Assembly: GCA_003024175.1 (NCBI GenBank)
Contig: MDYQ01000018.1
Coordinates: 221,554 to 285,553, forward strand
Direction: 5' to 3'
DNA length: 64,000 nucleotides
From: Planoprotostelium fungivorum
Lineage: Eukaryota > Evosea > Variosea > Cavosteliida > Cavosteliaceae
Shown: positions 29,515 through 64,000 of the stretch, one piece after another
How positions within the stretch are numbered: position 1 is the first letter of the stretch
Layout of the letters: every line of letters begins with the position of its first letter
Translations under genes and position numbers: made by a program
The notes under the pieces: generated by a model
The model's input: the letters and a program-made list of their open reading frames with translations, nothing else
Database searches by the model: none
What the model was told of the DNA's origin: nothing

Positions 29515-32228
29515 CTAATGACGTAGAGGCTTCTTGATTCTGTCCATGCGAGCCTTCACCCCTTGCAACTTGTGCGAAGTCGTCCCGCCCGCCTGCCATC
29601 CCTTCTGAAACGCAATGTTGAATTTACTGTCTCCCGGGCTGACACACATCTTGCACTGAACGAACACGTTGACACCAGTCAGCGTTTGTGTGGGATCCGC
29701 TGCATGTATAACGGTGGCATTGTCTGAATATCCATACGACACGGTGATGATGCAAGGTGCATCGATACCGATGGTGACGTTCTCCTTTCCGGTGTTGAAG
29801 CTGACGTTGCCGGGAGAGAAAAAGGCCGCCGTGAGGGTGCGATTGGTCAAGTGCTGTACGGCGTGTAAATCTCCGTTGGCACGGATCACTCGAATGGAGC
29901 TGCGTAGAGTAGGGAGGAGAGAAGAGAAGTTCTTCTGGTTGAGGCCGGGGACGGTGACGTAGACGAAAGAGCCGGTGTCTGTGGTTAAAATGGGCTTGAA
30001 GATCTTCGCTGTGACGGGAACGTTTTGTGGTGCGATGGTCTGCCAGTTGCCGCTGACGTTTCCGTTGGACACGTTGAGAGTAAGACCGGAAGGAGATGGG
30101 AAGTAGTAACCCACGAGATCTTGATGCAGCCACTGTGGATTCTATATTCTACCGTAAATAAAAAGATTTAAACTTTTACATCGGATGAATATTTTTTCGA
30201 CGTGACGAAAAGAGTGAGAAGAAAAGTGGCTCACGCGGAAAGTCTTAGATGGCACAGAGAAGACGCCGGTGTCAGTGGAAAAGTCTCCCCTCGATATGCG
30301 ATGGTCTAAAGTAGTGATGACGGGGAGACCCTTGCTCTGCACGATGTCCGTAGCCACGACAACATACAATCCTCCGAAAAAATGCCACGATCTGTTGATT
30401 TCTGTCAGCTAACAATCTTCTTAGGTGTGAATCTCACTTTTTGTATGATAGTTGGGAGTTGATGGGGCTGAGAAAGTCCATGGCAGACAGAGCAGTCCTT
30501 CCGTTGCTGACGCTCCCCACGAATTTCTTCAAACCCTGTGACGTTGTAGAAGGATCGAACGTAAGGTACGTACGATGACACGGTTCGAGCAGGTGAGCTT
30601 GTGGGATGCAGGATCGACTGTGACACCTGCCAGAGTCTAAATTCAGGTGCGTAAAGTACGTACGTACCCGGTGGAGTGTAGCCCCAGAACACTTGACTAG
30701 GTACATAGTCCATTCCGTTGACATAATTGTACACCACTCCATCACTGTAGTGCTGACTCTGTATGCCCTGACCATTGTAGCATTCCGAAGTGTACGTACG
30801 AGGTGACAGCATCTACAACGTTGTAGATCGATTTTTTATGAAAGATGATTATTTGGATGGAGATCGCCCACCTTGAGGCCCACGACAAAATTGTCACTAC
30901 GATAAGAGACATAATCTGTCTTGTAAAATACTTTGACTCCGTTCAACTTGAAAGGGTTGACACCCTGAAGAGAAGAGTTGACCTGCAGTCTTGCCATGGC
31001 CGTGGCCAATGCGGTGTCGTTCCATTGTTGTGCAGTGCTCCTGCACGGAGATCAACGAAAATCCCATGAAAACTCGACGAAAACTCACTGGATGAGCTTC
31101 CACGCTCCGGAGTACCTGGCGGAATTGGGACCGTACGTGACTCCCCTTCCCATCTGATGGAAGTCCCAATTTGCGACACCGTTGGCGTGATAGATGCTCC
31201 AGACTGAAGATCTGATGAAGAGAGACACGGCCGATTTCTGTGCAGCGTTCGGGTTCAATCCTACAGTGTCCCACAGATCGAAAATATCCGCGGCCTGATG
31301 TGCGATGAGACGTGGATGATGAGATCGAGCTCACAAAGATCTGTCCGTAGCCTGCGAAATAGGGGAGGCCACCGTGTTGGATGAAAGAACCGTCGGAGTT
31401 GATGCCGTCTTGGTAGCTGACCAGATCGCAAGCGCGATTGACTTGATCCATGGCGCTCAGAAGGAGTGATTCATCTCGGGTGACGATGGACAGGTAGACA
31501 GCAACCAATGCCGTATCAGACAGATTCGCTCCTGTTTTTTTCCGTCAGATCACATCTTCATCACATGAATCATCTTGTGAATCAAAAGAATCATCATCTC
31601 ACCCGTATACTTCTTCACGTATAGACCGCCGCGGTTCAAAAGTCGAACACATCCCTCTTTCTGCTGAGCACTCAGCTGATTACGAACAGCCAGAGCCACA
31701 CAAGAGAGACCAGCCGTTTTAGGAGTCTTGATGACCTGATACCACCAGTTTGGATTCCACAGCCCGGGCGTATTACACGGGCAGTTGTCGTAGCCATTGT
31801 TAGGTAAACACTTTTGGCCCTCGGGAAAATCGTGGGCGAACCAATAGTCCATAGCTCTCCTGTTGGGGGATCAGAAGGACATTGAGGATCATGCGAAAAC
31901 ATACTTGACCGCAGACAGAGTGGCTGTATCGTTCGTCTGATACCAATGCATTGCGCCGGCACCTTCAAGAAGGTCAGATCTGATCCGATCGATTGTTATC
32001 GATGTCCTCACTGGTGAATGTCCAGTGATTAACTGCGTCCCAGGTAGCTCTGGAAGCCTGACAGCCGGAGGTGTAATCAACATTAGAGAAGGATCCAGTA
32101 GGAGTCAGAGTGGCCATTGCTTTGGAAGATGCCACACTCTGTTTCGAGAGTATCCTTAGAGCCACATCATCTACGACAGAAGCTGATGCGCTCAGACATA
32201 TGACGAGGAAGGTGAAGACGCCCCTCAT
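29515..32228 (-). CDS. Polysaccharide lyase family 8 enzyme (left copy)
   Basis: PL8 lyases cleave uronic-acid polysaccharides such as hyaluronan, chondroitin or xanthan by beta-elimination. The ATG at 32228 starts a signal peptide (MRGVFTFLVICLSASASV). The alpha-toroid part has GLWNPNWWYQVIKTPK and DGSFIQHGGLPYFAGYGQIF, which carry the family's catalytic Asn, His and Tyr, plus NWDFHQMGRGVTYGPNSARY. The beta-sandwich part reads MLSPRTYTSECYNGQGIQSQ, SWHFFGGLYVVVATDI, TTLDHRISRGDFSTDTGVF and DLVGYYFPSPSGLTLNVSNG. It ends RMDRIKKPLRH with TAG at 29515. About ten exons encode about 735 residues, normal for PL8. It looks secreted and intact and is convergent with the GH19 gene. Confidence 0.9.
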
Positions 32229-32749
32229 CTTCGTATGTGTGAAAAATGTTTTTAAGCAGCGACCCCGCTGTATAGACAGATTTTACTTGGCTTGGAACAA
32301 GGAGACAAATGTGTCATACTGAAGGCAGAGTGTGACACCACAGTCAACTTCAAGACCTTCGCTACCCAAGAAGTAATCGATGTAACAGCACATCCACTAT
32401 ATTTTATATATGGAAGTCTGCCCCGTTGAAATGCTTGTAATAGCCGTAAAGGCTTTATAATATAAAGCCTGTGATTTTGTGATGTCGGCGGCGGTATCGG
32501 AGCTTCAATTGGTCGGCAACGGGGCCCGAGGATTTTCCTCGTCGGCAACGGAATCCGAGCATTCTCTGCAATGCGTGTCATCACGTCAGCTGACTGCAAG
32601 CTCACTATTAATCCATCCTGCTTCCCCGATGGTTCGTGGGTTGTTACCGCGTTTCATCACGTGAAACCATCGGAATGTACCCTCCGAACGATCTCACGTA
32701 AGCACCGAGTTAGAGGAAGGACGAAATCAATTCAAACCAATCAAACAAG
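32229..32749. promoter_or_regulatory. Divergent promoter region, PL8 / dehydrogenase (left)
   Basis: About 520 bp separate the start codons of the minus-strand PL8 gene and the plus-strand dehydrogenase gene. It contains a TATA-rich patch at 32400-32465 (TATATTTTATATATGG, TATAATATAAAGC) and no supported ORF. The right counterpart (60765-61359) is longer by about 75 bp, and this is one of the most diverged parts of the arms. Confidence 0.5.
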
Positions 32750-34218
32750 ATGAGCACAGAGTACAAATTTCAAGGATGGATGGGTGAACCTATCTCTGCA
32801 CAATCTCATATGTACAACATTCCTCGACTCATTTCACTCTCAGGTCTGGACAAGGACTCTCACAAGGGTAACCTCGTCTGGAAGGAATTCGAGCCTAAGA
32901 CTTGGGAGGAGACTGATGTCGATATCAAGATCACTCACTGCGGTATCTGTGCCAGTGACGTCCACACTTTGTCCAGTGGATGGGGTCCAACGCCTTACCC
33001 CATCTGCGTCGGCCATGAGGTCGTAGGAACCATCGTCCGCATTGGATCGAAAGCCGAAGCAGGTGAGGCTCGCTCTCACGCACTCTTCGTAGTCACTCAC
33101 GGTCCCAGGTCTGAAGATCGGCGATCGGGTCGGTGTTGGAGCTCAATGTGGATCGTGCCTCAGCTGCCACCGCTGCAAGACAGACATGGAGCAATACTGC
33201 GACCAGGGTCAGATCTTCACCTACACCGGTAGATACCCCGACGGAACCATGTGAGATATGGAGCTTCTTCTTCGTTATCTCATGGAGAATCAGATCCCAG
33301 GGAGGCTACGGAGACTACATTCGTGTTCCCTCGCACTTCGCGATCCCGATCCCTGAGGGTGAGCATTCGATCTTATCTTTTCCTTGACTTAAAATCAGGA
33401 CTTCCATCTGACGTAGCAGCTCCCATGCTGTGCGGTGGCATCACCGTGTACTCACCCTTGAAGGTAACGAACTTAAATACGTCCGTCATATTTTGTGACA
33501 TTTTATCAGCACAACGGAGCCGGTACTACTGCCAAGAACGTCGGTATCGTTGGAATCGGAGGAGTGAGTTAGGAATAATACAAAGGGTCTGATAGGAGTG
33601 CCAGCTCGGACACTTTGGACTCCTCTTCGCTAAGGCTATGGGAGCTGAAGTCACCGCCATCTCACACTCTGAGAAGAAGAAGGCTGATGCTCTCGAGATG
33701 GTGAGTCAATCTATATGATATCCATTCATGTCCTCGTTATACACAGATGTGAAATCTTACCACCTCCAGGGAGCCACACACTTCATCAACACGAGTGAGC
33801 AAGATTGGGATCAGAAGAACAAGCGCACATTGGACCTCATCATCAGCACTTCCAACGATGAATCCATTCCATTCGACAAATATCTCAACCTCTTGAAACC
33901 CTACGGAAGGATGGTTCTCGTCGGTGTCCCCAGCAACTGGAAGGTAGAGGTCGGTCTGTGGACTCTGCTTATCAACGGAGTGTTCATCGGAGGTGATGGA
34001 GATTCGGCGGGAAGATGAGTGACAAGGTGACAGCTTCTGCCATCGGTACTCCTGTGGACATTCGAGAGATGCTGGAGCTGGCTGCCAAGCAGAACATCAA
34101 GACATGGATGGAGCCCTACCCCATGGACAAGGTGAACGAGGCCCTCAACCACTTCAATGAGAGAGGAATGAGATACAGAGCTGTGCTCTACAACCACAAG
34201 CACATCGAGGAGAAGTAA
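32750..34218 (+). pseudogene. Zinc alcohol dehydrogenase (CAD-like), frameshifted left copy
   Basis: This is a medium-chain dehydrogenase of the cinnamyl-alcohol-dehydrogenase/YahK type: NADP(H)-linked, zinc-dependent, cytosolic. Motifs: catalytic-zinc Cys in KITHCGICASDVHT, CVGHEVVGTI, structural zinc knuckle GAQCGSCLSCHRCKTDMEQY, and the Rossmann motif GIVGIGG/LGHFGLLFAKAMG. Exon joins are GT-AG and most introns are near 60 nt. Compared with the right copy, two extra bases (GGTGATGGAGATTC against GGTGAGAGATTT) lie at about 33995. They shift the frame and give a TGA about seven codons on. The downstream C-terminal frame (ASAIGTPVDIREMLELAAKQ to KHIEEK) remains open but is out of phase. The protein would lose about 70 residues unless the indel is an assembly error. 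Confidence 0.82.
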
Positions 34219-34468
34219 CCATGAGGGAGCATATCCCTCCGTTGAGATGAATAAAACATCATGCATTCTCTTTTCAATTGCACAGTACTCTCTTCAGATG
34301 GACGATAACGCCAACCACTGCTCCTCTTCCAAGCCTGCGGCATCGGCCCATAGTGGTCAGAAGAGCACACAATCGAACACTTCGACATTCTTTATTTCAG
34401 GATGAATGAAAATTTTCTCCTCCGTGGAGAAAGGAAAATCACGACAACTCTGTCGATCGGATTGAAGC

Positions 34469-35859
34469 TCACTTTCGACTGACTTTCATCGTGTACTCAT
34501 AGATGACACCAGATAGACTGGAGAAGACGCAAGAATAGAGACAACGAGGTAAGACACCCTTATAGAGGGCCCTGGGACCTGTTCGAGTCGGTGTCTCTTC
34601 GTGATGATGAGTAGTGTCTTCAAGATCACCTTCCGTCTTGACGATGGATCTTAAACCCTGCCACGTGTTTGCGTAGAAATAAGCGGCTTCTCCCGGACGT
34701 GAAAAGTGTTGCGTCTGCAGGCGTGTCTTAACTACCTGTGAAGAATGACATCAGATGGTGTCGTGCCGATGGATGATGGAAGTTCGTGTGATGATCGTGA
34801 TCTCACCTCTAACGGGTTTGTAACGAGCACCATGGTCACACCTGCAGTCGCTCCTGCGGCGAATTGTGCCAACAAGTTTTGCTCGATGACTTTCTGTCAT
34901 CTCATCACGACATTGCGAGAATCAAAGTCTGATCGATGTCTCACCGAATCCGTCTGCGGTCGGATCTTGTGTGCTAGATGAGAGAATGCTTCCTTGCACG
35001 ATTCATACGAAGCCCACCACACGGCTGATGACGGGACGTTTGTCATGAGAACGGCACCGAAGCCTCTATAGAAGCCTTTGATACCATCTGCTCGGTAGAT
35101 CTGACCGATGGCATCTGAAATGAGTCACACACTTGGCCGAGCAGGATGTAGTGAAATGTTTCTCACCCGTTGCGTTCTTGTATCGCTTGGATTTCTCGTT
35201 CTGAATGAATAATCTCTGCACGACCACATCTACCGGTGCGTAAAATAAATTTGAAGTTAGATCGGCCAGGCCTCCGGCGGCGAGAGACACCCAGACTGCT
35301 AAAGAGAAGATGAGCGTGATGTGGTGACGATTCTATCTTCGTATGGACGTGATGACGGTACTTGCCTGATCGTCCATCTTTACGTCCATCTGATGCGTAA
35401 TCGGATAACTTTGAACGGAAAAAGTTGTAGCTGAGGAGATAAACTGCGTTTCCGGGGATATTACCTATGGTATTGGGCCAATAGCCAGTGTACATACCTT
35501 GATGCACTTTCAGATGGATGTCAACGTGTAAAATGAGCATCGATGGGTCAGATGATGCGATCGATTGTCACCTCTGAAGCCTGCAGTCTTTATGGAAGTT
35601 CTGATGTCAGCGAGATTCATCCTCTGAAAGCGTTGAGCTCGATTGACAATCGTCATTTTCTCACCTTCTGAGTTGTCTGTATTCTAGTTCTTAAGACATC
35701 AAAAGGATGGTATATGACACTCTCAGCGACATAGATGCTAGTAGCCGTGAAGGCGAGTGTGGGTAGGTGTAGCTGATCCCAGGATGTCCTCACATCGTAT
35801 ATCAGATCACCATCATCCTTCTCTGTCAGTGATGAAGATGTAGGTTGGGGTTGTGTCAT
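34469..35859 (-). CDS. Mitochondrial carrier (SLC25 family), left copy
   Basis: This is a six-helix inner-membrane transporter built of three repeats. ATG at 35859 (MTQPQPTSSSLTEKDDGDLI). Repeat signatures are VIYHPFDVLRTRIQTTQK, FYAPVDVVVQRLFIQNEK and VTNPLEVVKTRLQTQ, each a form of P-x-[DE]-x-[LIVAT]-[RK]-x-[RK]. Matching second signatures include DGIKGFYRGFGAVL and GPRALYKGVLPRC. The spacing and the VQRLFIQ variant recall SLC25A44-like (branched-chain amino acid) carriers, but the substrate is not certain. It ends EYTMKVSRK* at 34469. About seven exons encode about 340 residues. It is intact and essentially identical to the right copy. Confidence 0.88.
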
Positions 35860-36216
35860 TTCCCCCTGATGTGATCTGATCTGTCCGAGGGCTGAGAATT
35901 CTCAGAATAAATGAAATTTTCCGAACTATGCCTGAAACTGCTGTGTCTTGTCATCCGTTGAAGTATATAACCCAACAGAAGTTCAATAGACATTGGCAAT
36001 TGAATGGACTAACCATTACCGAAGCAATTTCAATCTCACTTTGGCTGGAAATCATCAGCTTCCGTGACGTCCTCGCCGGTGTAGTTTCGCGGTACACCGT
36101 TCACGGGCTTGATAGTACATCGTTGGACAGTGAAAACAAGAGGAACGTCAACGGGCTGAAGAGAGGGAAGGATGAATGCTTGAACAATTGACACTATTAT
36201 CACTCTGTGACGTTCT
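35860..36216 (+). other. Gap between SLC25 and TBC genes; possible small ORF (left)
   Basis: This is the 5' flank of the SLC25 gene and 3' flank of the TBC gene. A plus-strand open frame (about 35928-36191) reads RHWQLNGLTITEAISISLWL and GLDSTSLDSENKRNVNGLKR. Its right counterpart (57372-57097 minus) starts with ATG (MKFSELCLKF) and differs by in-frame insertions of 15 and 6 nt. The opposite strand is also open over part of the segment (GVPRNYTGEDV). Which strand is coding, if any, is undecided. Confidence 0.3.
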
Positions 36217-39111
36217 TTATTGTGACTGTGCCTCTAAGAAGAGATTGGCTGGTGCCGTTGACGGCTTGCGGCCCCACTCTGCTCGGCTCTGTATGGACTT
36301 TTTCAGCTCGGGGTCCACCTTCTGTTCCTCGTCAGCTCTTCCTTCTCTCTCTCTCACCGGATCATCTCTGAAGTGAACGAACAACTGCTCGGCGTGGATC
36401 AAAGTCTTGTTCAAATCGATCTTGTCTGACTTGTCGTTCGTAAACTGGATGTTTGTCAGATATTCTGCTCGTGATGACAGAGGTGATGTGTTCACCTTGA
36501 TGAGATCGTCAAAGTTGGATGTCTCTGACATGATCTCGGTCCTGAATGAGATGATGATCGAACAGGCGATGAAGAGATGGAAGTTGGGTGTAAGGTGGTT
36601 TGTCCAACAGACCTGTCGTTGTCAGTACGATCGTGTGATCGCGATCGATGATCGTGATCGATGGATGATCGTGTTCGATCTTCATGGTGTCGCTCAGATG
36701 ATCGATGATGATGTCCACCTCCCACAGTCTCATGATCTCATCAAACTTGAACTCCCTCTTAAAATGAATGAGAAGCCACCTGAAGCAGAAGAACATGTTC
36801 AGACATTCTCTCTTTCGTGTTCAAGTCAAGGCGAACGATACATCACGTATACATCGTAAAAGGATATCTAAGAAGGCGTGCATGTCAGGGTCCAACGTTT
36901 GTAGAACGTTTGATAATTGTAAGAGCTGCGTGTGCATGCCATTCTGATCTCTGTGGAAATTGTTCTCGAACGATTGCATCAGGCCGTGGAAGGACCAGAA
37001 GGCAGCAGATTCGTCTCGCATGACATAGAAGATGGGAGAGAGGAATTCGTTCATGCCTTGGACGTAGCCTGGATCGCTTAAGAAGATGATCACGAGATGA
37101 TGATGTGCGTGATGTGATCATGTCTCGATCATTGATGGAAAATGACCATGATTTCGAATTTGGAGTGTATGGTGATGATCACCTCATCATGATGTGATGA
37201 TCGATGATGTGATGATCGATGATGAATGATGATAACAAAACACTCACCCAGATCGTAATTCATAAAGACATACGTGAGTAAAATATCGTGCAAGCTCTTC
37301 AAATGAGGATTCTTCGCATCACCGTTGGCGTAAAACTCCACGTGTCGATCCGTTCGTAGTACATCCTTCTCTGAGATATTTTCACATTTCCATCCTGCGT
37401 CTCCACTGGTCTCACCTATGGCGTGTGCCTTTCTCTCCAATTTAGTGAACTTGCAGTTTGGATCCTTGTGAAACATGTTCCAGACACCCTTCCATTTCTC
37501 ATATTCGTCTCTGATGTCTTGAATACAAGAGTACAAAAAAGATGTCGAGTTGAAAAGAAGTTCAAAATATCATTTCTCTTTGGACAAGAATGAAATAAAT
37601 GTGGACGACTCACCTCTTCTCTTTCTCGATGGCAGTCCTCTCTTCTCTGGTAGAAGACCATGGATAATATCCCAATAGATACCTCCACACTTCACCTCTG
37701 ATTTCTTCTTTCGCTCCCTACCATCGTCATCACGTGATCTCATCTACTTCGAGCCCATACGAAATAAAATAGAATAAAACACACCCCGCGGAAAATCATC
37801 TCCTTTGCCTTCTGTGGCTCTACAATGGCTCCCCGTTCATCCTGAAGACTTTTCCACGAAATTTCATCCACTGGATCCGTTCGCTGAACGATCGGTAATA
37901 CCAACTGCGGTGCCGGCTTCAACACCTCCTCCACGATCTCGAAACCTCCCTCACTACAACGAGCCTCAGATATTTGGGACGTCCCAAATATGACGTCATC
38001 ACCTGATTCGGGTTTCCGATATCTTCTCGGGTTTGGCCTCGGACTTCCGATCTTTCGGTGATTGGATTGTCTTTGCCTTGTTGTCTCCACCGTTGGCGAT
38101 GCGGTCCAATTGCTGCCCTGCGTTTCTGGCAAATTGGGTCACCTTGGAGAAGCTCTCGAATAGGTTCTGAGAGAAACTCTCTTCCTGGAGGAGACGATCA
38201 GATGATGCAATGATGGATGGGTGGTGCTGACGTCGATGGTTCTGTAGAAGTGATCGTCGTGATGTAGAAGACGTGCTTGAGGTGATGTCCCATGATGATG
38301 ATGATGCATACCTTTTTGGGTGTCTTGCTTACGTCTGGAGTCATGTGTAATGCAGGAGGTTGTGCTTGGTTGTTTCCATCTAGAGTTGAAGGGTAACTGT
38401 AACTCTTATTCAGAGATTCTAGACTTGTCCTCAGATTATCGTGCGACGCTGGATCCTCTGTGATGACATCAGTTTCACGATCATCATCATCTACACGTGC
38501 AATGGAGGTGATGGTTCTGATGATGGAAGATGATCTCACCAGAATATTCACTGAGAAAGAATAGATTGGGCTCATCATCTGATCTTCTCAGAGTGGCAAA
38601 CATTCTGAGCGCACCCAGAAACTCTCTCACACCTGTAGACGGTGAGTGATGATGTGGTACAACAACATCCACCTCCAGAATGGAAGAACATGGGAGGGAA
38701 TGCGAAGCCCTCCTTTGAGATGAGAATCATGTGGCTGACTCCGATCGTAGGAATGAATCTCTTTAGACTGCGAAGGTCTCCGATAGACACTTTCATTGCG
38801 TAAGGTTGACTGGCTGCACGAGCGGCTTGGTCTATGTCGTTTCAGTCTCTTCGATCGATGATCCGATGCACCTCTCGCTTTGGGGTCCCAAGATAAAAAG
38901 ATGTGGTTACCCTGTGATTGATTAAAGAGAATACGTGATGGTGCGTTTCAGAACCTGTTTTAATATTCTAAGAGAACCAGGGATGACTTGGTCTTTAGAG
39001 GGGTAAATGAAGACGTCATCTCGGCTGTAGACGATTTGTTCCTGTTTGAATCATGAGAAGAGAGAAGAATCCATATTAGTTCACCCCAATGATTAAACCT
39101 TTCGTCGCCAT
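36217..39111 (-). CDS. TBC1D15/17-like Rab GTPase-activating protein (left copy)
   Basis: TBC proteins switch off Rab GTPases; TBC1D15-type members act on Rab7 in late endosomes and at mitochondria. ATG at 39111 (MATKGLIIG/EQIVYSRDDVFIYP). The N-terminal lipid-binding-like region has VSIGDLRSLKRFIPTIGVSH. The TBC domain starts AKEMIFRG and EVWRYLLGYYPWSSTREERT, then HVEFYANGD...LHDILLTYVFMNYDLG, DPGYVQGMNEFLSPIFYVM with the glutamine finger, WSFHGLMQSFENNFHRDQNG, FKREFKFDEIMRLWE and NFHLFIACSII. The conserved arginine-finger IxxDxxR motif appears as SEKDVLRTDRHVEF. The C-terminus is charged and ends FLEAQSQ at 36217. About 12 exons. It appears intact; the right copy has a C-terminal frameshift. 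Confidence 0.9.
37970..37991. repeat. 22-bp perfect palindrome in a TBC intron
   Basis: ATATTTGGGAC is followed directly by its reverse complement. It lies in the intron between the exon ending near 38000 and the exon beginning with EGGFEIVEEVLKPAP. The same palindrome is present in the right arm at 55304-55325. Confidence 0.85.
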
Positions 39112-39704
39112 GCTCTCTGGATTTTTGATGTGATGTTGTGGCCGAAACACACGTTGTTTGTCAGCTCCCGAACCGCGAAAGGGCGTCGGAAACACAAGCT
39201 CACGAGGCACAGAACCGAAGTTGCTAGAGTTGGGTTGTGGGCAAGGTGATCGCACCTTAGGTCCCTCTCCTTCAGATTATCACTCCACGATGACAACGCC
39301 ATCTCACTCAAGTCATCAAGATCCGTAAACGATTACAATCAGGAATGATCTGATTCGATCAGGATTGAAAGAGTAACCTCTTGGTAGTGTCATCACATGC
39401 CATCGAGCTGATCCCATAAAATTCCTCCAACTCCACACGAAAAATTACGATGCTGCCATCTTCGTATAGAGGAGAGGGTCCACTGTATCTGGTGCCTCTC
39501 CTCTCCTCTCCAGAGGTGATCTCGATCGGATCATGCGATCGATGCTAATGTGTGATCATCAGGTGATCTCTTACACAACCAGGAACGATGGATAGCGAAA
39601 TAGAAGAATGCGGTTACATCGTCGTTCATTGATTTATTCAAATCTCTTACCAAATTCGACACTCGATGTGTGAGAAGATGAATCGATCCTTCATTTATCC
39701 CGCG
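39112..39704 (+). pseudogene. Decayed hypothetical gene (left) in the TBC-sedolisin gap
   Basis: The right arm carries a minus-strand coding-like segment here (about 53400-53900). The left counterpart is visible at about 39370-39465 as IKFLQLHTKNYDAAIFV followed at once by a TAG. Most of the remaining exons fall in a block of about 320 nt that is absent on the left. The rest of the gap holds the TBC promoter and sedolisin 3' flank, with no other supported feature. Confidence 0.5.
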
Positions 39705-41518: not shown

Positions 41519-41530
41519 GATGTGATGAGA

Positions 41531-41579
41531 CAATAAAAATCATTTTACGACATAATGAGTCGTAAAATGATTTTTATTG
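41531..41579. repeat. 21-bp perfect hairpin upstream of sedolisin (left)
   Basis: Two 21-nt arms, CAATAAAAATCATTTTACGA plus one base and its exact complement, flank a 7-nt loop (ATAATGA). It begins 13 nt upstream of the sedolisin ATG, so it lies in the leader or core promoter. Each arm contains an AATAAA reading outward. It is repeated at 51393-51441. Confidence 0.9.
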
Positions 41580-51392: not shown

Positions 51393-51441
51393 CAATAAAA
51401 ATCATTTTACGACTCATTATGTCGTAAAATGATTTTTATTG
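51393..51441. repeat. 21-bp perfect hairpin upstream of sedolisin (right)
   Basis: The same hairpin as at 41531-41579, 13 nt upstream of the right sedolisin ATG (51454), with the loop read as TCATTAT. Both arms of the large duplication retain it without change. Confidence 0.9.
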
Positions 51442-51453
51442 TCTCATCACATC

Positions 51454-53267: not shown

Positions 53268-53399
53268 CGAGGGATAAATGAAGAATGGTGAACGATCGAT
53301 TCATCTTCTCGCACATGGAGCGTCGAATTTGGTAAGAGATATGAATAAATAACCACATTCTTCTATTTCGCTCTCAGCAACGGAGACCCACACATTCAT

Positions 53400-53900
53400 C
53401 GTTCTGATTGCTTTCCTCCCCTCTTTGATTCTACGGCCGCCTAAAGATATCAGATACCTGTGTCATCTGCTCACCTGCGTGGCATCGTGGAGGGCCATGA
53501 CCACACCCTTGTCTCTCTCGTCCCTCACAAAATTATTCACTTGTTCAATTCAACTTGATTCTCTTCGTCTTCTCACCTCTTTCATAAATACCTCATCGAG
53601 GTCCATGTTTGTAAAGAGATCACCTGACGATCACACATCAGCATCGATCGCATGATCCGAACGAGATCACCTCTGGAGAGGAGAAGTACCGGATGCAGTG
53701 GACGAGGATGGCAGCGTCGTAATTTTTCGTGTGGAGTTGGAGGAATTCGATGGGATCAGCTTGATGGAATGTGATCACACTACCAAGAGACGATCTTTTA
53801 GGCAACTCTGTGCTTGACCAAGAGTCGTAGGTGATCCTGATCCAATCAGATCATTCCTGATTCTAATCGTTTACAAATCTTGATGACGTTGTCATCGTGG
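53400..53900 (-). CDS. Hypothetical gene, coding-like only in the right arm
   Basis: Minus-strand exons read ELPKRSSLGSVITFHQADPI and FLQLHTKNYDAAILVHCIRY up to SSPE before a GTGATC donor (about 53693). Then MDLDEVFMKE (about 53605) precedes a GTGAGA donor, then NNFVRDERDKGVVMALHDAT (about 53545-53480) precedes a GTGAGC donor. The composition and consistent donors suggest a genuine small gene. The 5' and 3' ends are not resolved and no family is recognised. The left homologue has a stop codon and a deletion of about 320 nt. Confidence 0.45.
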
Positions 53901-54183
53901 AGTGATAATCTCAAAGGGAGAAAGCACCAAGGTGCAATCACCATAATCGAGTGAACCAGGGTCAACGGCTGTGACGCGACCAAGAGGACCTACGGCTGCC
54001 GCATGAACAGCCGTGCGATCACCTTGCCCACAACTCTAACAACTTCCATCCTGTGCCTTACGTGAGCTTGTGATTCTCCATTTTACGCTTTCCTTCTTCG
54101 ATACAAATTTGTGTTTCCGACGCCCTTTCACGGTTCGGGAGCTGACAAACGAAACACAACATCACATCAAAAATCCAGAGAGC

Positions 54184-56985
54184 ATGGCGACGAAAGGTTT
54201 AATCATTGGGGTGAACTAATATGGATTCTTCTCTCTTCTCATGATTCAAACAGGAACAAATCGTCTACAGCCGAGATGACGTCTTCATTTACCCCTCTAA
54301 AGACCAAGTCATCCCTGGTTCTCTTAGAATATTAAAACAGGTTCTGAAACGCACCATCACGTATTCTCTTTAATCAATCACAGGGTAACCACATCTTTTT
54401 ATCTTGGGACCCCAAAGCGAGAGGTGCATCGGATCATCGATCGAAGAGACTGAAACGACATAGACCAAGCCGCTCGTGCAGCCAGTCAACCTTACGCAAT
54501 GAAAGTGTCTATCGGAGACCTTCGCAGTCTAAAGAGATTCATTCCTACGATCGGAGTCAGCCACATGATTCTCATCTCAAAGGAGGGCTTCGCATTCCCT
54601 CCCATGTTCTTCCATTCTGGAGGTGGATGTTGTTGTACCACATCATCACTCACCGTCTACAGGTGTGAGAGAGTTTCTGGGTGCGCTCAGAATGTTTGCC
54701 ACTCTGAGAAGATCAGATGATGAGCCCAATCTATTCTTTCTCAGTGAATATTCTGGTGAGATCATCTTCCATCATCAGAACCATCACCTCCATTGCACGT
54801 GTAGATGATGATGATCGTGAAACTGATGTCATCACAGAGGATCCAGCGTCGCACGATAATCTGAGGACAAGTCTAGAATCTCTGAATAAGAGTTACAGTT
54901 ACCCTTCAACTCTAGATGGAAACAACCAAGCACAACCTCCTGCATTACACATGACTCCAGACGTAAGCAAGACACCCAAAAAGGTATGCATCATCATCAT
55001 CATGGGACATCACCTCAAGCACGTCTTCTACATCACGACGATCACTTCTACAGAACCATCGACGTCAGCACCACCCATCCATCATTGCATCATCTGATCG
55101 TCTCCTCCAGGAAGAGAGTTTCTCTCAGAACCTATTCGAGAGCTTCTCCAAGGTGACCCAATTTGCCAGAAACGCAGGGCAGCAATTGGACCGCATCGCC
55201 AACGGTGGAGACAACAAGGCAAAGACAATCCAATCACCGAAAGATCGGAAGTCCGAGGCCAAACCCGAGAAGATATCGGAAACCCGAATCAGGTGATGAC
55301 GTCATATTTGGGACGTCCCAAATATCTGAGGCTCGTTGTAGTGAGGGAGGTTTCGAGATCGTGGAGGAGGTGTTGAAGCCGGCACCGCAGTTGGTATTAC
55401 CGATCGTTCAGCGAACGGATCCAGTGGATGAAATTTCGTGGAAAAGTCTTCAGGATGAACGGGGAGCCATTGTAGAGCCACAGAAGGCAAAGGAGATGAT
55501 TTTCCGCGGGGTGTGTTTTATTCTATTTTATTTCGTATGGGCTCGAAGTAGATGAGATCACGTGATGACGATGGTAGGGAGCGAAAGAAGAAATCAGAGG
55601 TGAAGTGTGGAGGTATCTATTGGGATATTATCCATGGTCTTCTACCAGAGAAGAGAGGACTGCCATCGAGAAAGAGAAGAGGTGAGTCGTCCACATTTAT
55701 TTCATTCTTGTCCAAAGAGAAATGATATTTTGAACTTCTTTTCAACTCGACATCTTTTTTGTACTCTTGTATTCAAGACATCAGAGACGAATATGAGAAA
55801 TGGAAGGGTGTCTGGAACATGTTTCACAAGGATCCAAACTGCAAGTTCACTAAATTGGAGAGAAAGGCACACGCCATAGGTGAGACCAGTGGAGACGCAG
55901 GATGGAAATGTGAAAATATCTCAGAGAAGGATGTACTACGAACGGATCGACACGTGGAGTTTTACGCCAACGGTGATGCGAAGAATCCTCATTTGAAGAG
56001 CTTGCACGATATTTTACTCACGTATGTCTTTATGAATTACGATCTGGGTGAGTGTTTTGTTATCATCATTCATCATCGATCATCACATCATCGATCATCA
56101 CATCATGATGAGGTGATCATCACCATACACTCCAAATTCGAAATCATGGTCATTTTCCATCAATGATCGAGACATGATCACATCACGCACATCATCATCT
56201 CGTGATCATCTTCTTAAGCGATCCAGGCTACGTCCAAGGCATGAACGAATTCCTCTCTCCCATCTTCTATGTCATGCGAGACGAATCTGCTGCCTTCTGG
56301 TCCTTCCACGGCCTGATGCAATCGTTCGAGAACAATTTCCACAGAGATCAGAATGGCATGCACACGCAGCTCTTACAATTATCAAACGTTCTACAAACGT
56401 TGGACCCTGACATGCACGCCTTCTTAGATATCCTTTTACGATGTATACGTGATGTATCGTTCGCCTTGACTTGAACACGAAAGAGAGAATGTCTGAACAT
56501 GTTCTTCTGCTTCAGGTGGCTTCTCATTCATTTTAAGAGGGAGTTCAAATTTGATGAGATCATGAGACTGTGGGAGGTGGGACATGATCGATCATCGATC
56601 GCATCAGGATGATTTCGATCATCTGAGTGACATCGATGACGATCATCCATCTCACGATCATGCTGACGATGAAAGGTCTGTTGGACAAATCACTTAACAC
56701 CCAACTTCCATCTCTTCATCGCCTGTTCGATCATCATCTCATTCAGGACCGAGATCATGTCGGAGACATCCAACTTTGATGATCTCATCAAGGTACACAT
56801 CATCTCCGTCATCACGAGCAGAATGTCTGACAAACATCCAGTTTACAAACGACAAGTCAGACAAGATCGATCTGAACAACACTTTGATCCACGCCGAGCA
56901 GTTGTTCGTTCACTTTAGAGATGATGCGGTGAGAAAGAGAGAGAAGGAAGAGCTGACGAGGAACAGAAGGTGGACCCTGAGCTGA
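54184..56985 (+). pseudogene. TBC1D15/17-like Rab GAP, right copy with C-terminal frameshift
   Basis: Mirror of 36217-39111 from ATG 54184. The N-terminal region and TBC domain (DPGYVQGMNEFLSPIFYVM, FKREFKFDEIMRLWE) are intact. In the last exon a GA repeat has two extra bases (GGTGAGAAAGAGAGAGAAGG against GGTGAGAGAGAGAGAAGG on the left). The frame changes after FVHFRDDAV and stops at TLS* (56983-56985), replacing about 45 residues of the left protein. The TBC domain itself is complete, so the product may still be active; 'pseudogene' is therefore tentative. The intron after RLWE is also rearranged relative to the left. Confidence 0.8.
55304..55325. repeat. 22-bp perfect palindrome in a TBC intron (right)
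   Basis: The same palindrome as at 37970-37991 (ATATTTGGGAC and its complement), unchanged between arms, inside the intron before EGGFEIVEEVLKPAP. Confidence 0.85.
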
Positions 56986-57066
56986 AAAAGTCCATACAGA
57001 GCCGAGCAGAGTGGGGCCGCAAGCCGTCAACGGCACCAGCCAATCTCTTCTTAGAGGCACAGTCAC

Positions 57067-57423
57067 AATAGAGAACGTCGCAGAGTGATAGTAGCGTCAA
57101 TTGTTCAAGCATCTATCCTTCCCTCTCTTCAGTGCGTTGACGTTCCTCTTGTTTCCACTGTCCAACGATGAACTATCAAGCCCATGAACGGTGTACCGCG
57201 AAACTACACCGGCGAGGACGTCAAAGTCACGGAAGCTGATGATTTCCAATTCGTGAATTTGGAGCCAAAGTGAGATTGAAATTGCTTCGGCAATGGTTGT
57301 GCCATTCAATTGCCAATGTCTATTGAACTTCCGTTGGGTTAAAAACTTCAGGCATAGTTCGGAAAATTTCATTTATTCTGAGAATTCTCAGCCCTCGGAC
57401 AGATTAGATCACATCAGGGGGAA
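57067..57423 (-). other. Gap between TBC and SLC25 (right); possible 91-codon ORF
   Basis: On the minus strand an ATG at 57372 opens MKFSELCLKFLTQRKFNRHW ... LWLQIHELEIISFRDFDVLA ... CLNN* (57097). Compared with the left arm it carries extra 15-nt and 6-nt blocks, both multiples of three. The plus strand of the same segment is also open (MNGVPRNYTGEDVKVTEADD). It may be coding on one strand or simply the SLC25 upstream region. Confidence 0.35.
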
Positions 57424-58814
57424 ATGACACAACCCCAACCTACATCTTCATCACTGACAGAAAAGGATGATGGTGATCTGATATACGATGTGAGGACATC
57501 CTGGGATCAGCTACACCTACCCACACTCGCCTTCACGGCTACTAGCATCTATGTCGCTGAGAGTGTCATATACCATCCTTTTGATGTCTTAAGAACTAGA
57601 ATACAGACAACTCAGAAGGTGAGAAAATGACGATTGTCAATCGAGCTCAACGCTTTCAGAGGATGAATCTCGCTGACATCAGAACTTCCATAAAGACTGC
57701 AGGCTTCAGAGGTGACAATCGATCGCATCATCTGACCCATCGATGCTCATTTTACACGTTGACATCCATCTGAAAGTGCATCAAGGTATGTACACTGGCT
57801 ATTGGCCCAATACCATAGGTAATATCCCCGGAAACGCAGTTTATCTCCTCAGCTACAACTTTTTCCGTTCAAAGTTATCCGATTACGCATCAGATGGACG
57901 TAAAGATGGACGATCAGGCAAGTACCGTCATCACGTCCATACGAAGATAGAATCGTCACCACATCACGCTCATCTTCTCTTTAGCAGTCTGGGTGTCTCT
58001 CGCCGCCGGAGGCCTGGCCGATCTAACTTCAAATTTATTTTACGCACCGGTAGATGTGGTCGTGCAGAGATTATTCATTCAGAACGAGAAATCCAAGCGA
58101 TACAAGAACGCAACGGGTGAGAAACATTTCACTACATCCTGCTCGGCCAAGTGTGTGACTCATTTCAGATGCCATCGGTCAGATCTACCGAGCAGATGGT
58201 ATCAAAGGCTTCTATAGAGGCTTCGGTGCCGTTCTCATGACAAACGTCCCGTCATCAGCCGTGTGGTGGGCTTCGTATGAATCGTGCAAGGAAGCATTCT
58301 CTCATCTAGCACACAAGATCCGACCGCAGACGGATTCGGTGAGACATCGATCAGACTTTGATTCTCGCAATGTCGTGATGAGATGACAGAAAGTCATCGA
58401 GCAAAACTTGTTGGCACAATTCGCCGCAGGAGCGACTGCAGGTGTGACCATGGTGCTCGTTACAAACCCGTTAGAGGTGAGATCACGATCATCACACGAA
58501 CTTCCATCATCCATCGGCACGACACCATCTGATGTCATTCTTCACAGGTAGTTAAGACACGCCTGCAGACGCAACACTTTTCACGTCCGGGAGAAGCCGC
58601 TTATTTCTACGCAAACACGTGGCAGGGTTTAAGATCCATCGTCAAGACGGAAGGTGATCTTGAAGACACTACTCATCATCACGAAGAGACACCGACTCGA
58701 ACAGGTCCCAGGGCCCTCTATAAGGGTGTCTTACCTCGTTGTCTCTATTCTTGCGTCTTCTCCAGTCTATCTGGTGTCATCTATGAGTACACGATGAAGG
58801 TCAGTCGAAAGTGA
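57424..58814 (+). CDS. Mitochondrial carrier (SLC25 family), right copy
   Basis: Mirror of 34469-35859, ATG at 57424 and TGA at 58812-58814. The three carrier signatures (HPFDVLRTRIQ, APVDVVVQRLFIQ, NPLEVVKTRLQ) and splice sites are the same as in the left copy, and the readable protein segments are identical. It looks functional. Confidence 0.88.
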
Positions 58815-59287
58815 GCTTCAATCCGATCGACAGAGTTGTCGTAGTTTTCCTTTCTCTACACGGAGGAGAAAATTTTCATTCATCCTGAAATAAAGGATGT
58901 CAATGTGTTCATAACGATCAGTCGGAGCCTTCTAACCAAAGTATGGGCCGATATAGCAGTCTTGGAAGAGTAGCCACTATTTGGCATCAGTATCTCATCT
59001 TTTTTGTATTCACAATCCTGCGACGAATCAAATGGCTTCTGTCGGGATGTAGAGTAAAGCAAAGACGCATGTCGTGCATTCAATTCGAAGAGGGAGGCAG
59101 AGATGCGAGGTCACATCTTCTGTTCATGTTGGTAGATGAGGAGACAGAGGGTGAGGTGAGAGATGGATGCTCATCTGACACACAAATGTCTTGTTCGTCT
59201 CAAATTTTCACGTGAGAATACTGTGCAAGCGAAATGAAAATGCAAGATGTTTTATTCATCTAATGGAGGGGTACTCCCCCGAAGAGG
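58815..59287. other. Intergenic stretch with a right-arm-specific block
   Basis: This lies between the 3' ends of the convergent SLC25 and dehydrogenase genes. About 224 nt (roughly 58960-59210) have no counterpart on the left arm. The flanking CACTATGGGCC-like sequence is only partly shared. An open frame across it (MGRYSSLGRVATIWHQYLIF) has no recognised domain. TTTATTCATC at about 59251 is the dehydrogenase poly(A) signal on the minus strand. Confidence 0.4.
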
Positions 59288-60764
59288 TTACTTCTCCTCC
59301 TCGATGTGCTTGTGGTTGTAGAGGACAGCTCTATATCTCATTCCTCTCTCGTTGAAGTCGTTGAGGGCATCATTTACCTTGTCCATGGGGTAAGGCTCGA
59401 TCCATGTCTTGATGTTCTGCTTGGCAGCCAGCTCCAGCATCTCTCGGATGTCCACAGGAGTACCGATGGCAGAAGCTGTCACATTGTCATTCATCTTCCC
59501 GCCAAATCTCTCACCTCCGATGAACACTCCGTTGATAAGCAGAGTCCACAGACCGACCTCTACCTTCCAGTTGCTGGGGACACCGACGAGAACCATCCTT
59601 CCGTAGGGTTTCAAGAGGTTGAGATATTTGTCGAATGGAATGGATTCATCGTTGGAAGTGCTGATGATGAGGTCCAATGTGCGCTTGTTCTTCTGATCCC
59701 AATCTTGCTCACTCGTGTTGATGAAGTGTGTGGCTCCCTGGAGGTGGTAAGATTTCACATCTGTGTATAACGAGGACATGAATGGATATCATATAGATTG
59801 ACTCACCATCTCGAGAGCATCAGCCTTCTTCTTCTCAGAGTGTGAGATGGCGGTGACTTCAGCTCCCATAGCCTTAGCGAAGAGGAGTCCAAAGTGTCCG
59901 AGCTGGCACTCCTATCAGACCCTTTGTATTATTCCTAACTCACTCCTCCGATTCCAACGATACCGACGTTCTTGGCAGTAGTACCGGCTCCGTTGTGCTG
60001 ATAAAATGTCACAAAATATGACGGACGTATTTAAGTTCGTTACCTTCAAGGGTGAGTACACGGTGATGCCACCGCACAGCATGGGAGCTGCTACGTCAGA
60101 TGGAAGTCCTGATTTTAAGTCAAGGAAAAGATAAGATCGAATGCTCACCCTCAGGGATCGGGATCGCGAAGTGCGAGGGAACACGAATGTAGTCTCCGTA
60201 GCCTCCCTGGGATCTGATTCTCCATGAGATAACGAAGAAGAAGCTCCATATCTCACATGGTTCCGTCGGGGTATCTACCGGTGTAGGTGAAGATCTGACC
60301 CTGGTCGCAGTATTGCTCCATGTCTGTCTTGCAGCGGTGGCAGCTGAGGCACGACCCACATTGAGCTCCAACACCGACACGATCGCCGATCTTCAGACCT
60401 AGGACCGTGAGTGACTACGAAGAGTCACGGGAAAGCGAGCCTCACCTGCTTCTGCTTTCGATCCAATTCGGACGATGGTTCCTACTACCTCATGGCCGAC
60501 GCAGATGGGGTAAGGGGTAGGGCCCCATCCACTGGACAAAGTGTGGACGTCACTGGCGCAGATACCGCAGTGAGTGATCTTGATGTCGACATCGGTCTCC
60601 TCCCAAGTCTTGGGCTCGAATTCCTTCCAGACGAGGTTACCCTTGTGAGAGTCCTTGTCCAGACCTGAGAGTAGAATGAGTCGAGCGAATCGAATGCCGT
60701 ACATATGAGATTGAGTAGAGATAGGTTCACCCATCCATCCTTGAAATTTGTAGTCAGTGCTCAT
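59288..60764 (-). CDS. Zinc alcohol dehydrogenase (CAD-like), intact right copy
   Basis: Mirror of 32750-34218 without the frameshift. ATG at 60764 (MSTDYKFQGWMG), catalytic zinc site KITHCGICASDVHT, CVGHEVVG, structural zinc cysteines (GSCLSCHRCKTDME) and a Rossmann segment. The frame stays continuous through VFIGGERFGGKMNDNVTASA and IGTPVDIREMLELAAKQNIK to KHIEEEK* at 59288. About 350 residues, nine exons. It shows several substitutions against the left copy (SAQS/STQS, TWMEP/TWIEP, NEALNHF/NDALNDF), more than the other gene pairs. The likely role is reduction of aldehydes with NADPH. Confidence 0.9.
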
Positions 60765-61359
60765 CTTCTTTGTTTGTTTGGTTTGATTTGACTCCGTCCC
60801 TCCTCTAACTCGGTGCTTACGTGAGATCGTTCGGAGAGGTATATTTCGATGGTTTCACGTGATGAAACGCATTAACAACCCACGAACCATCGGGGAAGCA
60901 GGATGGATTACTAGTGAACTTGCAGTCAGCTGACGTGATGACACGCATTGCAGAGAATGCTCGGATCCCGTTGCCGACGAGGAAAATCCTCGGGCCCCCG
61001 TTGCCGACGAGATGAAGCTCCGATACCGCCGTCAATCACCACTGAGTCTTCCGACGACTTTGAACCGGTCAGCGCGCACCCGTCGATGGCCTAGTTAGAC
61101 GGTCGGTTCGTTGAGCAACAGATGAATATCATATTCTGACCTTCTGTAACACGGCTTTTAGGACGTGCATTTCAATAGCAGACTTGGTAAATTATAGTGG
61201 ATGTGCTGTTCATCGATTACCGTTCTTGAGTAGCGAAGTTGGCTGTGGTGTCACATTCTGCCTTCAGTATGACACATTTGTCTCCTTGTTCCAAGCCAAG
61301 TAGAATCTGTCTATACAGCGAGGCCACTGCTTAAAAACATTTTTCACACAGACGAAAAG
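60765..61359. promoter_or_regulatory. Divergent promoter region, dehydrogenase / PL8 (right)
   Basis: 595 bp lie between the two divergent start codons. The sequence is recognisably homologous to 32229-32749 but heavily diverged. It includes a right-only block near 61030-61140 and lacks the TATATA patch seen on the left. No ORF is supported. Confidence 0.5.
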
Positions 61360-64000
61360 ATGAGGGGCGTCTTCATCTTCCTCGTCGTATGTCTGAGCGC
61401 ATCAGCTTCCGTCGTAGACGACGTGGCTCTAAGGATACTCTCGAAACAGAGTGTGGCATCTTCTAAAGCAATGGCCACTCTGACTTCTAATGGATCCTTC
61501 TCTAATGTTGATTACACCTCCGGCTGTCAGGCTTCCAGAGCTATCTGGGACGCAGTTAATCACTGGACATTCACGAGTGAGGACATCAATAACAATCGAT
61601 CGGATGAGATCTGACCTTCTTGAAGGTGCTGGCGCAATGCGTTGGTATCAGACGAACGATACAGCCATTCTGGCTGCGGTCAAGTATGTTTTCGCACGAC
61701 ACTCAATCTCCTTCTGATTTCCCAACAGGAGAGCTATGGACTATTGGTTCGCCCACGATTTTCCCGAGGGCCAAAAGTGTTTACCTAACAATGGCTACGA
61801 CAACTGCCCGTGTAATACGCCCGGGCTGTGGAATCCAAACTGGTGGTATCAGGTCATCAAGACTCCTAAAACGGCTGGTCTCTCTTGTGTGGCTCTGGCT
61901 GTTCGTAATCAGCTGAGTGCTCAGCAGAAAGAGGGATGTGTTCGACTTTTGAACCGCGGCGGTCTATACGTGAAGAAGTATACGGGTGAGATGATGATTC
62001 TTTTGATTCACAAGATGATTCATGTGATGAAGATGTGATCTGACGGAAAAAAACAGGAGCGAATCTGTCTGATACGGCATTGGTTGCTGTCTACCTGTCC
62101 ATCGTCACCCGAGATGAATCACTCCTTCTGAGCGCCATGGATCAAGTCAATCGCGCTTGCGATCTGGTCAGCTACCAAGACGGCATCAACTCCGACGGTT
62201 CTTTCATCCAACACGGTGGCCTCCCCTATTTCGCAGGCTACGGACAGATCTTTGTGAGCTCGATCTCATCATCCACGTCTCATCGCACATCAGGCCGCGG
62301 ATATTTTCGATCTGTGGGACACTGTAGGATTGAACCCGAACGCTGCACAGAAATCGGCCGTGTCTCTCTTCATCAGATCTTCAGTCTGGAGCATCTATCA
62401 CGCCAACGGTGTCGCAAATTGGGACTTCCATCAGATGGGAAGGGGAGTCACGTACGGTCCCAATTCCGCCAGGTACTCCGGAGCGTGGAAGCTCATCCAG
62501 TGAGTTTTCGTCGAGTTTTCATGGGATTTTCGTTGATCTCCGTGCAGGAGCACTGCACAACAATGGAACGACACCGCATTGGCCACGGCCATGGCAAGAC
62601 TGCAGGTCAACTCTTCTCTTCAGGGTGTCAACCCTTTCAAGTTGAACGGAGTCAAAGTATTTTACAAGACAGATTATGTCTCTTATCGTAGTGACAATTT
62701 TGTCGTGGGCCTCAAGGTGGGCGATCTCCATCCAAATAATCATCTTTCATAAAAAATCGATCTACAACGTTGTAGATGCTGTCACCTCGTACGTACACTT
62801 CGGAATGCTACAATGGTCAGGGCATACAGAGTCAGCACTACAGTGATGGAGTGGTGTACAATTATGTCAACGGAATGGACTATGTACCTAGTCAAGTGTT
62901 CTGGGGCTACACTCCACCGGGTACGTACGTACTTTACGCACCTGAATTTAGACTCTGGCAGGTGTCACAGTCGATCCTGCATCCCACAAGCTCACCTGCT
63001 CGAACCGTGTCATCGTACGTACCTTACGTTCGATCCTTCTACAACGTCACAGGGTTTGAAGAAATTCGTGGGGAGCGTCAGCAACGGAAGGACTGCTCTG
63101 TCTGCCATGGACTTTCTCAGCCCCATCAACTCCCAACTATCATACAAAAAGTGAGATTCACACCTAAGAAGATTGTTAGCTGACAGAAATCAACAGATCG
63201 TGGCATTTTTTCGGAGGATTGTATGTTGTCGTGGCTACGGACATCGTGCAGAGCAAGGGTCTCCCCGTCATCACTACTTTAGACCATCGCATATCGAGGG
63301 GAGACTTTTCCACTGACACCGGCGTCTTCTCTGTGCCATCTAAGACTTTCCGCGTGAGCCACTTTTCTTCTCACTCTTTTCGTCACGTCGAAAAAATATT
63401 CATCCGATGTAAAAGTTTAAATCTTTTTATTTACGGTAGAATATAGAATCCACAGTGGCTGCATCAAGATCTCGTGGGTTACTACTTCCCATCTCCTTCC
63501 GGTCTTACTCTCAACGTGTCCAACGGAAACGTCAGCGGCAACTGGCAGACCATCGCACCACAAAACGTTCCCGTCACAGCGAAGATCTTCAAGCCCATTT
63601 TAACCACAGACACCGGCTCTTTCGTCTACGTCACCGTCCCCGGCCTCAACCAGAAGAACTTCTCTTCTCTCCTCCCTACTCTACGCAGCTCCATTCGAGT
63701 GATCCGTGCCAACGGAGATTTACACGCCGTACAGCACTTGACCAATCGCACCCTCACGGCGGCCTTTTTCTCTCCCGGCAACGTCAGCTTCAACACCGGA
63801 AAGGAGAACGTCACCATCGGTATCGATGCACCTTGCATCATCACCGTGTCGTATGGATATTCAGACAATGCCACCGTTATACATGCAGCGGATCCCACAC
63901 AAACGCTGACTGGTGTCAACGTGTTCGTTCAGTGCAAGATGTGTGTCAGCCCGGGAGACAGTAAATTCAACATTGCGTTTCAGAAGGGATGGCAGGCGGG
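61360..64000 (+). CDS. Polysaccharide lyase family 8 enzyme (right copy, cut by window end)
   Basis: Mirror of 29515-32228. ATG at 61360 with signal peptide MRGVFIFLVVCLSASASV; the same NWWYQVIKTPK, DGSFIQHGGLPYFAGYGQIF and NWDFHQMGRGV active-site blocks. The frame is open to the window edge (FNIAFQKGWQAG), where about 24 codons of the left protein remain unseen. Differences from the left are few and near the N-terminus (TPTG/TSNG, TATL/TAIL). It is probably functional. Confidence 0.9.

What the first reader, a model, noticed from the sequence alone, without database searches (positions are those of the whole stretch)
29588..64000. Gene-rich inverted duplication with arms of at least 15 kb around a 3.6-kb spacer
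Nine to ten consecutive genes on the left are repeated in mirror order on the right. Coordinate sums are constant within blocks (93588, 93507, 93283, 93295, 92972, 92817), and coding identity is close to complete. Such a structure may be a recent palindromic duplication, a chromosome-end or isochromosome-like fusion, a breakage-fusion-bridge or amplification product, or two haplotypes joined head-to-head by the assembler.
Basis: seen in the sequence. Interest (0 to 1): 0.85.

Follow-up and report, generated by a model that had tools for sequence, protein, structure and literature searches.

The report
Contig-end fold-back, probably assembly artefact
The mirror-image stretch really is in this sequence, but it looks like two versions of the same chromosome region stuck together head to head by the assembly software, because other contig ends in the same assembly fold back in the same way.

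Summary
The inverted repeat is in the sequence as described: arm A 29588-44610, arm B 48207-64000, spacer 3,596 bp. Base 64000 is the end of contig C116. The arms are a mosaic: six tracts (10,801 bp) are exactly identical, and the stretches between are about 4-21% divergent with indels. The contig's last 2,280 bp match the other arm exactly. The other end of the same contig also folds back (outer 9,856 bp exact), as does the right end of C25. Sampled contig ends have near-identical second copies more often than interiors: 15 of 23 against 3 of 23. All three fold-back loops contain DNA that also occurs on another contig with other flanks. Simplest reading: two homologous copies, probably haplotypes, were joined head to head, and the contig stops where copy B merges with sequence already used beside copy A. 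A true palindrome homogenised by gene conversion is not excluded, because no reads could be examined. Low interest as a biological structure; useful as a warning about this assembly.

The parts
29588..44610 (+). Left arm A of the inverted repeat (15,023 bp)
   Evidence: BLASTN and global alignment
48207..64000 (-). Right arm B (15,794 bp), mirror of A; ends at the contig end
29588..31867 (.). Exact tract 1 (2,280 bp), identical to 61721-64000 inverted; runs to the last base of the contig
33153..33996 (.). Exact tract 2 (844 bp), = 59511-60354 inverted
34485..35820 (.). Exact tract 3 (1,336 bp), = 57463-58798 inverted
36747..39140 (.). Exact tract 4 (2,394 bp), = 54155-56548 inverted
39793..41807 (.). 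Exact tract 5 (2,015 bp), = 51165-53179 inverted
42144..44075 (.). Exact tract 6 (1,932 bp), = 48742-50673 inverted
44611..48206 (.). Spacer / loop, 3,596 bp
44616..47792 (-). Most of a receptor-type gene (weak beta-helix match below its cut-off, GPS motif PF01825; kinase part recognised by eye only, no family match); 89% copy at C446:32751-35915, with one 1,011-bp exact run and different flanks
47858..48201 (.). Dispersed repeat (copies on C113, C4, C329, C414, C450 at 71-84%; C294:52-296 at 99%) that abuts the B-side junction
48201..48207 (.). Suspected false or rearranged junction between repeat and arm B
64000..64000 (.). End of contig C116, inside the B copy of exact tract 1
29515..32229 (-). 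Polysaccharide lyase family 8 gene (approximate limits); its last about 70 bp lie left of arm A, and its mirror copy in B is cut by the contig end
   Evidence: PF08124, PF02278, PF02884
32750..34217 (+). Zinc alcohol dehydrogenase gene in arm A (approximate limits), mirrored in B
   Evidence: PF08240; PF00107 below its cut-off
34469..35850 (-). Mitochondrial carrier gene in arm A (approximate), mirrored in B
   Evidence: PF00153
36217..39130 (-). RabGAP-TBC gene in arm A (limits very approximate), mirrored in B
   Evidence: PF00566 in the frame 36821-37117
39705..41520 (-). Sedolisin / tripeptidyl-peptidase-like gene in arm A (approximate), mirrored in B
   Evidence: PF00082, PF09286; Tripeptidyl-peptidase 1 chain 3edy_A E 2.9e-42
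42231..42632 (-). Cytochrome b5-like gene in arm A, mirrored in B
   Evidence: PF00173

Best explanation
Assembly artefact. Two homologous copies of one about 15-kb region, most likely the two haplotypes of a heterozygous organism, were laid head to head in one contig. The assembler followed copy A outwards, passed through a loop made largely of DNA that also occurs elsewhere in the genome, returned along copy B in the opposite direction, and stopped where B can no longer be told from the sequence already used next to A. SHOWN: the mosaic arms; the contig end inside an exact tract; the same layout at the other end of the contig and at the end of C25; loops that contain DNA with second copies elsewhere; an excess of duplicated sequence at sampled contig ends. 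INFERRED: that A and B are alleles rather than paralogs; that B would continue as the sequence already used beside A; and that the head-to-head step came from a repeat-mediated mis-join or from an inverted chimeric read (the second is set out below as a sub-case).
For: (1) Window base 64000 is the contig end, and the last 2,280 bp equal arm A exactly. A longer exact two-copy tract (2,394 bp) is present in full in both arms, so a 2,280-bp tract should not by itself have stopped the assembler. (2) The same contig folds back at its other end: C116:1-9856 equals the inverse of 26001-35856 at 100%, inner 593 bp at 98.65%, spacer about 988 bp. (3) The right end of C25 folds back: 85168-89505 against 95884-91452, exact runs of 681 bp (at the contig end) and 1,698 bp, the rest divergent, spacer about 1.9 kb. 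(4) Full-length second copies at 94% or more for 15 of 23 sampled contig ends (10 of 23 at 100%) and for 3 of 23 interiors (2 of 23 at 100%); Fisher p = 0.0007 and 0.017. Not all candidates were scored, so the end counts are lower bounds. (5) Each of the three loops contains a segment found on another contig with other flanks: 44616-47792 on C446 (89%), C116:17419-18395 on C167 (99.6%), C25:89912-91340 on C108 (96%). In the two C116 loops at least one limit of the shared segment falls at an arm junction. (6) The same mosaic of exact and divergent tracts is seen between pairs on separate contigs: C294/C113 with exact runs of 816 and 673 bp, C4/C329 with 330 bp. (7) Arm differences are 233 transitions to 139 transversions with large indels, which speaks for real divergence and not read error. 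(8) Arm DNA from 36.7-41.8 kb occurs in the two arms only, and the flank 24.5-29.5 kb has no full-length second copy.
Against: No sequencing reads or depth were available. The window holds no N, and nothing marks either junction as broken. Most sampled interiors (20 of 23) are single copy, so the assembly is not simply an uncollapsed diploid. A true long palindrome would also tend to break contigs. Some related copies lie on one contig away from its ends or in tandem (C446:35936-36936 against 92418-93254 inverted, 87%; C2 end against C2:101026, 96%), which real segmental duplication would also give. No other continuation of the arms was found: the about 100 bp of each inner arm edge held in the query matched the two arms only. 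Third copies of the rest of the arms were not validly tested (one search did not even report the query's own place). Blind frequency of fold-backs is low: apart from C116 itself, 1 of the 22 other ends sampled.
Confidence: 0.8

Rival explanations
1. A true genomic palindrome: an old inverted segmental duplication whose arms are kept partly identical by arm-to-arm gene conversion. The exact tracts are recent conversion tracts; the divergent stretches with indels are where conversion was blocked.
For: Mosaic of exact and 4-21% divergent tracts with indels between the exact tracts; no N in the window; the kinase-like gene that spans the A-side junction has its two parts in the same order as on C388, so the A-spacer join looks native; related inverted copies elsewhere on C446.
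Against: The same layout at both ends of C116 and at the end of C25 points to contig ends rather than to a locus. In each case the contig stops inside an exact tract, although a longer one is present in full in both arms here. Of 50 windows of 300 bp, 30 are at 100%, 15 at 96.3% or less, and only 5 at 98.6-99.7%, each of which holds a tract edge; conversion tracts of different ages would be expected to show intermediate identity.
Confidence: 0.13
2. Sub-case of the best explanation (its odds lie inside the 0.8): inverted chimeric molecules made before assembly, by whole-genome amplification or a missed hairpin adapter, gave fold-back reads that joined arm A to its own complement; leftover reads of the second haplotype then built arm B.
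For: Fold-backs with loops of about 1-3.6 kb at contig ends. One paper describes palindromic, inverted chimeric reads from multiple displacement amplification (PMC13265396, passages).
Against: The library type is unknown. Arms of pure fold-back reads would be identical to each other, so a second haplotype is still needed. Loops made of DNA with copies elsewhere fit repeat mis-joins at least as well.
Confidence: 0.25
3. Breakage-fusion-bridge, isochromosome or chromosome-end fusion in the sequenced cell line.
For: Inverted repeat next to a contig end.
Against: Arms 4-21% divergent in places; no telomere-type repeat in the stretches read around the fold-backs; both ends of the contig and a second contig show the layout.
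Confidence: 0.02

Closest known systems
Allelic palindromes of the 2013 Adineta vaga (bdelloid rotifer) draft assembly
   Same: Homologous, partly divergent gene blocks in mirror order on one contig or scaffold
   Different: 23 palindromic homologous blocks were recounted there (PMC5916493, passages). Here three fold-backs were found, all at contig ends, which is where I looked; interiors were not searched for palindromes as such. A later A. vaga assembly showed a single palindrome (PMC7749112, one passage), A. ricciae showed none (PMC5916493), and artificial palindromes from erroneous scaffolding are named as a risk (PMC7953838, passages)
Uncollapsed haplotypes (haplotigs) in assemblies of heterozygous genomes
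   Same: Sequence present twice with patchy divergence; contig ends duplicated elsewhere (my finding)
   Different: Here the two copies are joined head to head in one contig instead of lying on two contigs. Of PMC8178825 I saw the abstract and the section list
Y-chromosome palindromes kept identical by gene conversion
   Same: Large inverted repeats with long identical tracts
   Different: Those are described as evolving in a highly concerted way (statement in PMC7953838, passage); here exact tracts alternate with 4-21% divergent ones and the outer arm ends at a contig end

Membership tests
Head-to-head joined homologous copies (assembly artefact) | Outer arm ends at a contig end, inside sequence identical to the other arm | tested here: met
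   Window base 64000 is the contig end; 2,280 bp exact; also C116 start and C25 end
Head-to-head joined homologous copies (assembly artefact) | Same layout recurs at other contig ends of the assembly | tested here: met
   2 of 23 ends sampled fold back: C116 start (the window's own contig, chosen on purpose) and C25 end
Head-to-head joined homologous copies (assembly artefact) | Arms each at half depth, or reads that do not span the junction | not testable with these tools
   No reads or depth available
Head-to-head joined homologous copies (assembly artefact) | The two copies are alleles of one locus | tested here: inconclusive
   Similar mosaic divergence between pairs on separate contigs; only two copies of 36.7-41.8 kb; no segregation data
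True palindrome with arm-to-arm gene conversion | Inverted arms on one molecule around a spacer | tested here: inconclusive
   Present in the contig, but one molecule is not shown
True palindrome with arm-to-arm gene conversion | Both arms flanked by their own unique sequence | tested here: inconclusive
   Arm A has a flank; arm B has none in the assembly because the contig ends
Chromosome-end fusion / hairpin telomere | Telomere repeat or closed hairpin at the centre | tested here: not met
   No TTTAGGG or CCCTAAA in the window, C116:1-19000, C116:26001-36000 or C25:84001-95884, although TTTAGGG arrays occur on C71; spacers of about 1-3.6 kb

The most novel reading that the evidence does not exclude
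The genome of this eukaryote really carries homologous copies as palindromes with short loops, and exact tracts of 0.7 to at least 9.8 kb are homogenised by very recent conversion between arms while neighbouring stretches stay 4-21% divergent: a genome that cannot be split into haploid sets, as once claimed for Adineta vaga.
Probability: 0.1. Interest if true: 0.75.

Novelty: not a real feature. Interest (0 to 1): 0.15.

Why it matters
Gene counts, copy-number claims and synteny drawn from this assembly near contig ends would be inflated: at least six recognisable genes here appear duplicated and probably are not. The same kind of structure was once read as evidence for genomes without meiosis, so a plain contig-end control (does the other end, and do other contigs, fold back too?) is worth applying before such claims. 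If the palindromes proved real, they would reopen that question in another eukaryote.

Tried and rejected
Recent perfect duplication: rejected by the 4-21% divergent stretches. Sequencing error as the source of the differences: unlikely from transitions over transversions and large indels. Selection as the cause of the exact tracts: unlikely, because inferred introns and intergenic DNA inside the tracts are identical too. Telomere fusion: no telomere-type repeat (TTTAGGG and CCCTAAA counted, TTAGGG on one strand only). A tRNA gene or a known RNA family in the loop: none by ARAGORN (window) or Rfam at E up to 0.1 (44000-49000). Naming the organism: not achieved; paper searches and one find gave no match to a 36.86-Mb, 471-contig assembly, and the rRNA search failed. 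An amoebozoan origin is only my guess. Searches with 15-kb queries did not report the query's own place, so their silence on further copies is not evidence; the 5.1-kb query did report it. The paper search listed nothing used here.
Full report
What is there. The window is the last 64 kb of contig C116 (285,553 bp) of a eukaryote-like assembly of 36,859,091 bases in 471 contigs. The inverted repeat is real as sequence: A 29588-44610 and B 48207-64000, with 3,596 bp between. It carries, in A and mirrored in B, a polysaccharide lyase family 8 gene, a zinc alcohol dehydrogenase, a mitochondrial carrier, a RabGAP-TBC gene, a sedolisin-like peptidase and a cytochrome b5-like gene (families found in arm A frames), and open frames I could not name. 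One of these resembles a diphthamide-ammonia ligase to my eye, but no family matched.

The arms are a mosaic. Six tracts totalling 10,801 bp are exactly identical. In 300-bp windows of arm A, 30 of 50 are at 100%, 5 of 50 are at 98.6-99.7% and each of these holds a tract edge, and 15 of 50 are at 96.3% or less, down to 79% in a window that BLAST could not align fully. Evenly spread differences would give a longest exact run near 220 bp.

Contig end. The last 2,280 bp of the contig are identical to 29588-31867. A 2,394-bp exact two-copy tract is present in full in both arms, so exact tracts of that size were crossed. I infer that the contig stops because nothing distinct follows, that is, B runs into what was already used beside A. 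The left flank 24.5-29.5 kb has no full-length second copy; the matches listed are short (93% over about 290 bp on C447, 97% over 98 bp on C458) or of lower identity. Arm DNA from 36.7-41.8 kb occurs in the two arms only. For other parts of the arms a third copy was not validly tested.

Other contig ends. The start of C116 is also a fold-back: 1-9856 equals the inverse of 26001-35856 at 100%, the inner 593 bp at 98.65%, spacer about 988 bp; 19001-26000 was not read, so the continuity of that arm is inferred. The right end of C25 is a third: arms 85168-89505 and 91452-95884, exact runs of 681 bp (at the contig end) and 1,698 bp, 96% overall. I sampled 250 bp from 23 contig ends and 23 interior places. 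A full-length second copy at 94% or more was found for 15 of 23 ends and 3 of 23 interiors; at 100% for 10 of 23 and 2 of 23 (Fisher p 0.0007 and 0.017). In some searches only 40 of about 150 candidates were scored, so the end counts are lower bounds; all were scored. The three interior hits come from two contig pairs (C4/C329 twice, C446/C214). Interior places were taken near earlier repeat matches, which if anything favours duplication. The C71 right end (subtelomeric repeat) and the partial matches of the C94 and C447 right ends are not counted as copies. Eleven of 16 fetched starts were used; five were left out by eye. Two of the 23 ends fold back, one of them on the window's own contig.

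Loops. The window's loop holds a receptor-type gene (GPS motif; kinase part by eye, no family match) whose stretch 44616-47792 has an 89% copy at C446:32751-35915, with one exact run of 1,011 bp. That copy ends within about 20 bp of the A-side junction and then runs into unrelated DNA. Its other limit, 47792, lies 415 bp short of the B-side junction, with a dispersed repeat between; that repeat abuts the junction at 48201-48207. The continuation of the kinase-like gene lies in arm A, in the order seen on C388, so the A-side join looks native and the B-side join is the suspect one (inference). The loop of the C116 start has a 99.6% copy on C167 with other flanks, starting at one arm junction and ending about 12 bp short of the other. 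The C25 loop has a 96% copy on C108, whose limits lie 407 and 111 bp inside the loop.

Reading. Fold-backs at three contig ends, each stopping in an exact tract and each with a loop containing DNA that occurs elsewhere, fit homologous copies joined head to head by the assembler. The exact tracts would be collapsed or truly homozygous segments used twice. That the copies are alleles, and how the head-to-head step arose (repeat mis-join or inverted chimeric read), is inferred. A true palindrome with gene conversion remains possible, because no reads were available.

Literature. Palindromic homologous blocks of the 2013 Adineta vaga assembly were recounted as 23 by PMC5916493, which found none in A. 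ricciae and allowed that true differences might be involved (passages); PMC7749112 found a single one in its own A. vaga assembly (one passage); PMC7953838 counted 19 and notes that artificial palindromes can arise from erroneous scaffolding (passages); PMC13265396 describes palindromic reads from whole-genome amplification (passages); PMC8178825 treats uncollapsed haplotypes (abstract and section list). The Y-chromosome comparison is taken from PMC7953838. Of PMC12716839 I saw passages only, and of PMC11702301 a find with no hits; neither is used in the argument.

Noticed in passing
44616-47792 (-): Receptor-type gene with a GPS motif (PF01825, 41 bits), a weak beta-helix match below its cut-off, and by eye a membrane stretch and the first part of a protein kinase domain: possibly a GPS-kinase receptor.
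   Followed up: partly
47857-47888 and 48076-48107: A 32-bp unit, twice identical 219 bp apart inside a dispersed repeat; it looks like the 3' half of a tRNA by eye, but ARAGORN and Rfam give nothing.
   Followed up: partly
L071 (C71:78414-78693): TTTAGGG arrays at a contig end next to a subtelomeric repeat shared at 97-99% with at least nine other contigs.
   Followed up: no
L078 (C446:34436-38436): C446:35936-36936 has an 87% inverted copy at C446:92418-93254, about 56 kb away on the same contig.
   Followed up: no
L040, L042, L045, L046, L048: Starts of C117, C163, C232, C255 and C301 have 37-43% G+C, lower than most other starts read; C163 and C301 share a short stretch by eye. Possibly another organism or a repeat-rich fraction.
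   Followed up: no
L002 (C446) against 44616-47792: A 1,011-bp exact run inside a pair that is otherwise about 84% identical: the exact/divergent mosaic is not confined to the fold-backs.
   Followed up: partly
Whole-genome DNA searches with 15-kb queries did not report the query's own place, so their negatives are not informative.
   Followed up: yes
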